Notes under the pieces: model-generated
Told to the model about the DNA's origin: nothing
The model's database searches: none
Seen by the model: the letters and a program-made list of their open reading frames with translations, nothing else
Part shown: piece after piece, positions 7,220 through 53,113 of the stretch
How positions within the stretch are numbered: position 1 is the first letter of the stretch
How the letters are laid out: the number at the start of each line of letters is the position of its first letter
Source: Leptotrichia shahii
Lineage (GTDB): Bacteria; Fusobacteriota; Fusobacteriia; Fusobacteriales; Leptotrichiaceae
Reading direction: 5' to 3'
Length of the DNA: 64,000 nt
Assembly: GCF_008327825.1 (NCBI RefSeq)
Contig: NZ_AP019827.1
Location: 186,001 to 250,000 of the forward strand
Position numbers and translations under genes: made by a program

Positions 7220-7250
7220 GATAAAAAACTTAGGTTATCGAACATATCTA
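7220..7250. repeat. C-family element, right-end remnant
   Basis: ATAAAAAACTTAGGTTATCGAACATATCTA matches the right end of the C-family element at 20010-20121 almost exactly, but no left half is present. It lies in the 100-bp gap between nadN and the MazG-like gene. Confidence 0.6.
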
Positions 7251-18589: not shown

Positions 18590-19825
18590 ATGAACAACTT
18601 TGAAGAAAAATTAAATAAATATGCAGAAGTAATTGTAAAAATTGGTGCAAATGTGCAAAAAGGGCAGAAAGTATGGGTAAACTGCACAACTGACTCGTTG
18701 CCATTAGTTTATAAAGTTACGGAATTGGCTTATAAAGAGGGTGCGAGTGATGTTCATGTTAAATTGACAGATGATAAATTGTCAAGACTTCATGCTGAAT
18801 ATCAGTCAAAAGAAGTCTATTCATACATTCCTCAATGGGCGATTGACGAGAGAAATGATTATCTTGATAATAATGTAGTGTTTATCCATATTTTAAGCAG
18901 TTCTCCAAATTTATTTGCAGGAATTGATCCAGCAAAATTGGGAGCATTGGCAAAAAATGCTGGGGAAGCCTACAAACATTATAGAACATGTATTATGACA
19001 GATGTAAATTCATGGACAATTGCAAGTTATCCTTCAGCAGATTGGGCAAAACTTGTATTTCCTGATGAAATAGATGCTGATGCCGCACAGGAAAAATTGC
19101 TTGATGCGATATTGAAAACTGTAAGAGTTGATAAAGCTGATCCAGTTAAGGCTTGGGAGGAACATAGACAGAATTTAACTGAAAAAGCTGAATTTTTGAA
19201 TAGCAAAAATTTCGTGGCACTTCATTATACTTCAAAAGGAACTGACTTGACAGTTGGACTTCCTAAAAATCATATTTGGGTAGCGGCTGGAAGCGTGAAT
19301 GCGAAAGGAGCCGATTTCCTGCCTAATATGCCGACAGAGGAAGTGTTTACAGCTGGAGACAGAGATCGTGTGGATGGTTATGTTTCTAATAAAAAGCCGC
19401 TTTCGTATCAAGGAAATATTATTGATAATTTCAAATTGACTTTTAAAGACGGAAAAGTTGTAGATTTTGAAGCAGAGCAAGGATATGAGATTTTGAAGCA
19501 GCTGCTTGACACTGACGAAGGTTCGAGAAGGATAGGAGAAGTTGCTCTTGTGCCAAATGATTCGCCTATTTCAAATTCAGGGCTTCTTTATTATCAAACA
19601 TTATTTGACGAAAATGCCTCAAACCACTTAGCATTGGGTGCTGCATACCCAACTAATGTAAAAAATGGAACAAAAATGACAGAAGACGAATTAAAGGAAG
19701 CTCACATTAATCAATCAATTTCGCATGTTGATTTTATGATTGGTGATTCTGAAATGGATATTGACGGAATTTTAGAAGATGGAACGAGAATTCCTGTATT
19801 TAGAAAAGGAAATTGGGCTTTTTAA
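18590..19825 (+). CDS. Aminopeptidase, M29 family
   Basis: 411 residues, the standard length. M29 (AmpS/AmpT-like) enzymes are two-metal exopeptidases of the cytoplasm. Seen motifs: FLPNMPTEEVFTAGDRDRVD (metal-binding Glu and substrate loop), NHLALGAAYPTNV (metal-binding His), and HVDFMIGDSEMDIDG (His and Asp ligands near the C-terminus). GAAAGGA precedes ATG 18590. The chorismate mutase pseudogene follows after 25 bp, so they may once have been one transcript. Confidence 0.93.
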   Translation: MNNFEEKLNKYAEVIVKIGANVQKGQKVWVNCTTDSLPLVYKVTELAYKEGASDVHVKLTDDKLSRLHAEYQSKEVYSYIPQWAIDERNDYLDNNVVFIHILSSSPNLFAGIDPAKLGALAKNAGEAYKHYRTCIMTDVNSWTIASYPSADWAKLVFPDEIDADAAQEKLLDAILKTVRVDKADPVKAWEEHRQNLTEKAEFLNSKNFVALHYTSKGTDLTVGLPKNHIWVAAGSVNAKGADFLPNMPTEEVFTAGDRDRVDGYVSNKKPLSYQGNIIDNFKLTFKDGKVVDFEAEQGYEILKQLLDTDEGSRRIGEVALVPNDSPISNSGLLYYQTLFDENASNHLALGAAYPTNVKNGTKMTEDELKEAHINQSISHVDFMIGDSEMDIDGILEDGTRIPVFRKGNWAF

Positions 19826-19850: not shown

Positions 19851-20247
19851 ATGAAATGTGACAGCTTGGAAGAAGTGAGAGAAAATATTGATAATATAGA
19901 TGATAAAATTATAAAATTAATTGCACAGCGTTCAGATTATGTAAAACAGGCTGCTTATTTTAAAAAGTCAAAAATAGATGTAAAAGCAGCTGATAGAGTT
20001 GAAAAATAATAGACCTGTTCGATAACTATACAAACTTAGAATTTAATAAAATAAATATCTTGAAGCAAGGGGTCTTGACCCCTTGTATAGATAAAAAAAC
20101 GTAGGTTATCGAACATATCTAATAAAAAAGGTCAGGAAAAAAGCTAAAATTTATGATAACAATCGAGATGTTGTGGAATTGATTTATAGAGAAATGATAA
20201 ATTATTTTATCAGTGAAGAAATGAAAATTTTTGAAAAAAATAAATAG
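19851..20247 (+). pseudogene. Chorismate mutase (AroQ type), split by a C-family element
   Basis: From ATG 19851 the frame encodes MKCDSLEEVRENIDNIDDKI and on to ADRVEK, then stops at 20007-20009. This is the first two-thirds of an AroQ chorismate mutase, with the conserved Arg of EEVRENID, the Arg of IAQRSDYV, and KAADRVEK. After a 112-bp palindromic element, the missing third helix resumes at about 20122 as IKKVRKKAKIYDNN...VELIYREMINYFISEE and ends at TAG 20245-20247. AroQ enzymes convert chorismate to prephenate. The split makes the enzyme non-functional unless the helices assemble from two peptides, which is unlikely. Confidence 0.85.
20010..20121. mobile_element. C-family palindromic element inserted in chorismate mutase gene
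   Basis: 112 bp with inverted ends TAGACCTGTTCGATAAC and GTTATCGAACATATCTA (15 of 17 bases match), and the perfect core CAAGGGGTCTTGACCCCTTG at 20066-20085. It encodes nothing. Flanks read ...AAAAATAA before and ATAAAAAAG after, so a short AT-rich target duplication is possible but not certain. It separates two parts of one conserved protein, showing that the element arrived by insertion. Confidence 0.85.
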
Positions 20248-53015: not shown

Positions 53016-53113
53016 AAGATTTGTTCGATAACTTAATTTTTTTATTTAACAAGGGGTTAAGCCCCCTTGCTTTAGAATATTTATTTTATTAAATTTCAAA
53101 TTGAACAAGTCTA
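53016..53113. mobile_element. C-family palindromic element
   Basis: About 98 bp, starting AAAGATTTGTTCGATAAC and ending AAATTGAACAAGTCTA, with core CAAGGGGTTAAGCCCCCTTG at 53050-53069. It is the same family as the element splitting the chorismate mutase gene. It sits just past the stop of the FadL-like gene (read on the minus strand). Confidence 0.65.

What the first reader, a model, noticed from the sequence alone, without database searches (positions are those of the whole stretch)
19851..20247. Chorismate mutase gene caught in the act of being split by a small palindromic element
Two conserved parts of an AroQ-type chorismate mutase (up to ADRVEK, and from IKKVRKKAK to the stop) are separated by 112 bp that carry a 17-base terminal inverted repeat and a perfect 20-base central palindrome. 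Removing the insert restores the order of the conserved protein, with about one codon left unresolved. This proves that the non-coding repeat family can insert, and it points to loss of an aromatic amino-acid step in this strain.
Basis: partly seen in the sequence, partly recalled or inferred. Interest (0 to 1): 0.85.

Follow-up and report, generated by a model that had tools for sequence, protein, structure and literature searches.

The report
Transposon copy in a dying gene
A 110-base miniature transposon has landed in a small, dispensable chorismate-mutase-like gene of a Leptotrichia bacterium; the jump is real and its exact footprint is defined by uninterrupted relatives, but the gene was probably already broken and the cell keeps another intact chorismate mutase.

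Summary
Window 19851-20247 is one chorismate-mutase-fold gene, interrupted at 20011-20120 by a 110-bp MITE flanked by a 3-bp target duplication (AAT). Six species of the genus carry this gene after the same M29 aminopeptidase gene; three are intact and show the empty site. The MITE has at least 40 copies in this genome and occurs in all 13 genus genomes. Its ends match a 902-bp two-ORF IS5-family element found in relatives but not detected in this genome. Two more empty sites, and a matching base on both sides of 36/41 copies, fix the duplication at 3 bp.

Much of the interpretation does not hold. (1) Chorismate mutase is not lost: an intact mutase/prephenate dehydratase fusion is present here and in every genus genome searched. 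(2) The split gene is clade-specific, closest to PchB, and independently broken in two of the other five species that have it. (3) The MITE may not have killed it: the allele also lacks one A just before the insert, which alone creates a stop, and the tail has drifted far more (10/127) than the MITE (1/110). A passenger landing in an already dead gene is the better reading (about 65%).

A new MITE family of a known kind; interest is modest.

The parts
19851..20009 (+). Upstream piece of the CM/PchB-fold gene, 52 codons, ending in TAA (20007-20009) just before the element
   Evidence: 98% identical to residues 1-52 of the intact G006 gene
20002..20006 (+). Run of five A where relatives have six (three intact genes and two others aligned); a -1 lesion that alone makes the stop
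   Evidence: alignment
20008..20010 (+). Left copy of the 3-bp target duplication, AAT
20011..20120 (+). MITE, 110 bp, AGACCTG...ATATCT, one substitution from the family consensus
20011..20026 (+). Left terminal inverted repeat, identical over 16 bp to the end of the 902-bp IS in G006
20105..20120 (-). Right terminal inverted repeat, 14 of 16 complementary to the left
20066..20085 (.). Central hairpin CAAGGGGTC-TT-GACCCCTTG
   Evidence: sequence; fold
20121..20123 (+). Right copy of the target duplication, AAT
20122..20247 (+). Downstream piece of the gene (41 codons and stop), drifting: 10 private changes in 127 aligned bases running into the 3' flank
18590..19825 (+). M29 aminopeptidase gene, the conserved upstream neighbour in all six species with the gene

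Best explanation
A 110-bp non-autonomous transposon (MITE) of an IS5-family (ISL2-like) insertion sequence was inserted, by a transposase acting in trans, into a small stand-alone CM-fold gene (AroQ/PchB type), duplicating the 3-bp target AAT. Shown: the insertion, the element ends, the target duplication, the empty site in relatives, copies elsewhere, a matching autonomous element in congeners, and an intact second chorismate mutase. Inferred: that the transposase came in trans from an IS no longer detected in this genome. Also inferred (about 65%): the gene was already inactivated by loss of one A in an A6 run, so the MITE is a late passenger rather than the cause.
For: Intact gene at the same place, after the M29 gene, in G006, G007 and G011 with the empty site. 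40 copies in the own genome and copies in all 13 genus genomes, many at least 97% identical across species. The middle base of the ANT flanks matches in 36/41 copies, about 19 expected, p 5e-8. Two other empty sites fit ATT: L010 vs G011/G012, and L005 vs G011 with one mismatch beside it. The 902-bp IS in G006 has the same 16-bp end and IS5-type DDE domains in two ORFs; related copies in G002 are flanked by AAT/AAT. No relative of its ORFA in the own genome. Second chorismate mutase. Passenger order: MITE 1/110 vs tail 10/127 private changes, p 0.012; tail vs upstream part 4/182, p 0.025.
Against: The duplication is tiny and AT-rich, so one copy alone would not prove it. The relatives differ from the window by the missing A as well as by the insert, so no strain seen has the exact pre-insertion allele. 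The order of the lesions rests on few substitutions and assumes the MITE went in as the family consensus. Two of four complete IS copies have unlike flanks (ATT/AAT). No transposase of this IS was found in the own genome, so present mobility is not shown.
Confidence: 0.9

Rival explanations
1. The MITE insertion itself killed a working gene, and the missing A came later.
For: The insert adds 113 bp and separates the third helix from the rest, so it would inactivate the gene alone; the element is young (1 change in 110). The upstream part shows little drift (4/182).
Against: The tail has 10 private changes in 127 bases against 1 in 110 in the element (p 0.012); with constraint until a recent insertion about 4 would be expected (P of 10 or more 0.007).
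Confidence: 0.3
2. The element is a Tc1/IS630-type MITE with a TA duplication (my own first reading of the flanks).
For: Nearly all copies are flanked by TA on both sides.
Against: The empty sites show a 3-bp duplication with A and T belonging to the element ends; no DDE_3 transposase locus carries these ends, while DDE_Tnp_1 loci do.
Confidence: 0.02
3. The insert is tolerated: read through in frame like a Rickettsia palindromic element, or removed, so the enzyme is still made.
For: MITE-borne open frames exist elsewhere (a 229-aa open frame through one copy).
Against: Here the frame stops at TAA before the element and net 112 bp shifts the frame; the tail drifts.
Confidence: 0.02
4. Assembly or sequencing artefact.
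For: One of the two lesions is a single A in a homopolymer, a common error type.
Against: The insert has a proper duplication, a full family of copies and unique flanks; the genome is 2 contigs, 99.96% complete. The reading does not depend on the A for the loss of the tail.
Confidence: 0.02

Closest known systems
IS5-family elements of the ISL2 group (ISDge6 of Deinococcus geothermalis, PMC7674623; ISCaa2/ISCaa3 of Amoebophilus, PMC3196728)
   Same: ISDge6 ends begin AGACCtGCTGCG and it makes a 3-bp direct repeat (TCA); ISCaa2/3 are about 0.9 kb with two ORFs and a predicted frameshift, as in the 902-bp Leptotrichia element.
   Different: The window copy is a 110-bp derivative without a transposase; the target here is AWT in an AT-rich host. 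Group placement by transposase phylogeny was not done.
IS5-derived MITEs of prokaryotes (e.g. a 140-bp MITE with 3-bp repeats in Methanosarcina acetivorans, PMC3852290)
   Same: Short, non-coding, ends shared with an IS5-family element, tens of copies, 3-bp duplication.
   Different: Different sequence and host; here the autonomous partner was found in congeners, not in the same genome.
Rickettsia palindromic elements (PMC10969869)
   Same: A palindromic element of 110-150 bp inside a protein gene.
   Different: RPEs often keep the reading frame and are translated; this one lies behind a stop and shifts the frame.
PchB, isochorismate-pyruvate lyase of Pseudomonas (PDB 2H9D)
   Same: Best match of the intact gene product in NCBIfam and in the PDB; valine at the place of PchB Val55, the residue tied to lyase activity (PMC12329711).
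   Different: Below the NCBIfam cut-off (77 of 126 bits); the active-site Gln aligns with Glu; the only chorismate-binding enzyme found in this genome is TrpE-like, so a source of isochorismate is not evident.

Membership tests
MITE | Short, no transposase, terminal inverted repeats | tested here: met
   110 bp, TIR 14/16, no transposase ORF
MITE | Many dispersed copies with different flanks | tested here: met
   40 matches in the own genome, present in all 13 genus genomes
MITE | Target-site duplication and empty sites | tested here: met
   3 bp, ANT; three empty sites
MITE | Ends shared with an autonomous element | tested here: met
   16/16 with the 902-bp IS in G006, similar elements in G002 and G012; none found in the own genome
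MITE | Mobilisation in trans | not testable with these tools
   needs a transposition assay
IS5 family | IS5-type DDE transposase in the partner element | tested here: met
   PF13359 61.4 bits and PF01609 47.1 bits, both over cut-off; NF033581 (IS5) is the best NCBIfam model but each ORF alone is below its whole-protein cut-off
IS5 family, ISL2 group | 3-bp duplication and ends starting AGACC, as in ISDge6 | tested here: met
IS5 family, ISL2 group | Transposase groups with ISL2 in a tree | not tested
   no reference set of IS5 groups at hand
IS630/Tc1-mariner | TA duplication | tested here: not met
   empty sites show 3 bp
IS630/Tc1-mariner | DDE_3 transposase carrying these ends | tested here: not met
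Rickettsia-type palindromic element in proteins | Reading frame kept through the insert | tested here: not met
   stop before the element; net 112 bp
AroQ-fold (Pfam CM_2) | Family score over cut-off in the intact orthologue | tested here: met
   67.0 bits, cut-off 27
Housekeeping chorismate mutase | Glu at the place of PchB Val55; chorismate mutase equivalog cut-off | tested here: not met
   Val (Ile in G011); no chorismate mutase equivalog cut-off reached
Isochorismate-pyruvate lyase (PchB) | Equivalog PRK07075 cut-off | tested here: not met
   77 of 126 bits, although it is the best family

The most novel reading that the evidence does not exclude
The truncated 52-codon upstream piece, with its own start and ribosome-binding region, is still translated and kept under selection as a short helical peptide while only the tail decays, so that the stop and the MITE redefined the gene rather than ended it.
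Probability: 0.05. Interest if true: 0.5.

Novelty: new member of a known kind. Interest (0 to 1): 0.25.

Why it matters
It defines, with ends, target footprint and parent element, a MITE family spread through the genus; no description of one in Leptotrichia turned up in the paper library. It also shows a small metabolic gene decaying independently in three of six species, with one case where a mobile element looks like a passenger rather than the killer. It does not change the predicted ability of this strain to make prephenate.

Tried and rejected
A TA-only (IS630/mariner) or 5-bp TAWTA duplication was my first reading of the flanks; the empty sites rejected both, and DDE_3 loci lack the ends. 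Isolated end motifs in the own genome were fetched to look for an autonomous copy; none had a transposase nearby, and an ORFA search found none in the own genome. The MITE was not found in plasmids and its first 25 bases not in viral contigs. No second dedicated isochorismate synthase was found, so lyase activity stays unproven. No structure was predicted: the fold is settled by sequence.

Full report
What is there. The window is bases 186001-250000 of the main contig of a 2.16-Mb genome. A same-genus genome (G005) gives the same partial match to the IS protein (same coordinates, residues and 70% identity) as a contig titled Leptotrichia sp. oral taxon 879, so the genus is Leptotrichia (inference). 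At 19851 a gene starts just after an M29 aminopeptidase gene. It reads 52 codons and stops (TAA, 20007-20009). Its continuation lies at 20122-20247. Both parts match the two halves of one 94-aa protein of relatives, which is a CM_2 (AroQ-fold) protein.

The insert. Between them is a 110-bp element, 20011-20120, with 16-bp terminal inverted repeats (14 matching) and a central hairpin. 40 matches exist in this genome, in both orientations and different contexts. All 13 genomes of the genus have matches (40 here, 39 in G011, 42 in G012, 26 in G001, 13 in G009, fewer elsewhere), many at least 97% identical across species. The window copy is one substitution away from the consensus.

The footprint. 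Flanks looked at first like a TA duplication. Counting over 41 distinct copies showed that TA is fixed on both sides, and that only the third base out is coupled: the same base on both sides in 36 of 41, about 19 expected. Empty sites settled it. For copy L010 the related genomes G011 and G012 read GAAAATTAA-ATT-AAG where this genome has the element with ATT on both sides. For copy L005 the G011 site shows the same logic, with one mismatch next to it. The element therefore begins with A and ends with T and duplicates 3 bp, A-N-T. At the gene in question the duplicated triplet is AAT (20008-20010 and 20121-20123).

The empty site and a second lesion. G006, G007 and G011 have the intact gene in the same place. 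G009 and G012 also have it, each with its own damage: a single-base deletion in G009, and a single-base plus a 24-base deletion in G012. None has the element here. All five show AATAATAAAAAA at the site, where the window has one A fewer before the first TAATA. The missing A puts TAA directly after the lysine codon, so that lesion alone ends the protein.

Which came first. Counting changes private to this genome (the other five agreeing), the part upstream has 4 in 182 aligned bases, the downstream part 10 in 127, and the MITE differs from its consensus at 1 in 110. Downstream against MITE p = 0.012; against upstream p = 0.025; against the same region in the other species p = 8e-5. Amino-acid changes follow the same pattern: 1 upstream, 10 downstream against G006. 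If the gene had been constrained until a recent insertion, about 4 changes would be expected in the tail (P of 10 or more = 0.007). The simplest account is that the frameshift came first, the tail drifted, and the MITE arrived recently. The numbers are small and the tests share data, so I hold this at about 65%.

The parent element. DDE_3 (IS630) loci in the genus lack the ends. Several DDE_Tnp_1 loci have them: in G006 a 902-bp element, AGACCTGTTCGATAACC at both ends, with two ORFs (149 and 122 aa) in different frames, carrying HTH_Tnp_4, DDE_Tnp_4 and DDE_Tnp_1 domains and best matched by an IS5-family model. Similar 890-901-bp elements lie in G002 and G012. Two in G002 are flanked by AAT on both sides; those in G006 and G012 have ATT and AAT. 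The element was not found in the own genome. ISDge6, listed as ISL2-like, has ends beginning AGACC and a 3-bp repeat, and two-ORF elements of about 915 bp are known in that group. I call it IS5-family, ISL2-like, with the group not tested by phylogeny.

What the gene was. The intact protein scores best against isochorismate lyase (77 bits, cut-off 126) and its PDB matches are all PchB. Position 50 is Val (Ile in G011), aligned with PchB Val55, which a directed-evolution study ties to lyase activity, Glu being usual in mutases. The alignment of paper and chain numbering, offset by one, is my reading. Arg10, Arg27, Lys38 and Arg49 are kept; the active-site Gln aligns with Glu. The only chorismate-binding enzyme found in the own genome is TrpE-like, so isochorismate supply is not evident. 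Mutase or lyase cannot be decided here. In 33 genomes of the family only the six species have this gene; other matches are the bifunctional enzymes.

Is a step lost? No. A 394-aa chorismate mutase/prephenate dehydratase fusion with an intact CM_2 domain and open frame is present in this genome, and a fusion-sized match in all 13 genus genomes. Seven of the 13 have no stand-alone gene at all.

Verdict. A well-supported MITE insertion with a clean empty-site comparison; ordinary in kind, with a modest twist about who killed the gene.

Noticed in passing
L003 (G000:C1:2103587-2103697) against L156, L157, L158, L179: Another MITE copy lies where relatives continue the start of a small gene (reverse strand, apparently a helix-turn-helix regulator), so it may be a second insertion at a gene's 5' end.
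   Followed up: partly
L071, frame from about 1514 (G000:C1:1566525 copy): A 229-aa open frame runs through a MITE copy close to a shikimate-dehydrogenase-like ORF; MITE-derived peptide sequence may be fused to a protein there.
   Followed up: no
window 7234-7248 (-) and 53018-53032 (+): Two lone MITE-end motifs in the window without a full partner end, probably decayed copies.
   Followed up: partly
flank of L006 (query bases 1222-1318): A second short AT-rich intergenic repeat gave dozens of matches in G011 and G012, unrelated to this MITE.
   Followed up: no
G012:C1:708265-708376 and G000 copy L005: The same MITE insertion is shared by G000 and G012 while G011 has the empty site, so some insertions predate species splits.
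   Followed up: partly
G005 genome: Many fragments of the parent IS5-like element in this draft genome (14 partial ORFA matches), suggesting high past activity there.
   Followed up: no
L233 (G007), M29 aminopeptidase gene: The first half of the gene is much more diverged than the second, as if recombined from another lineage.
   Followed up: no
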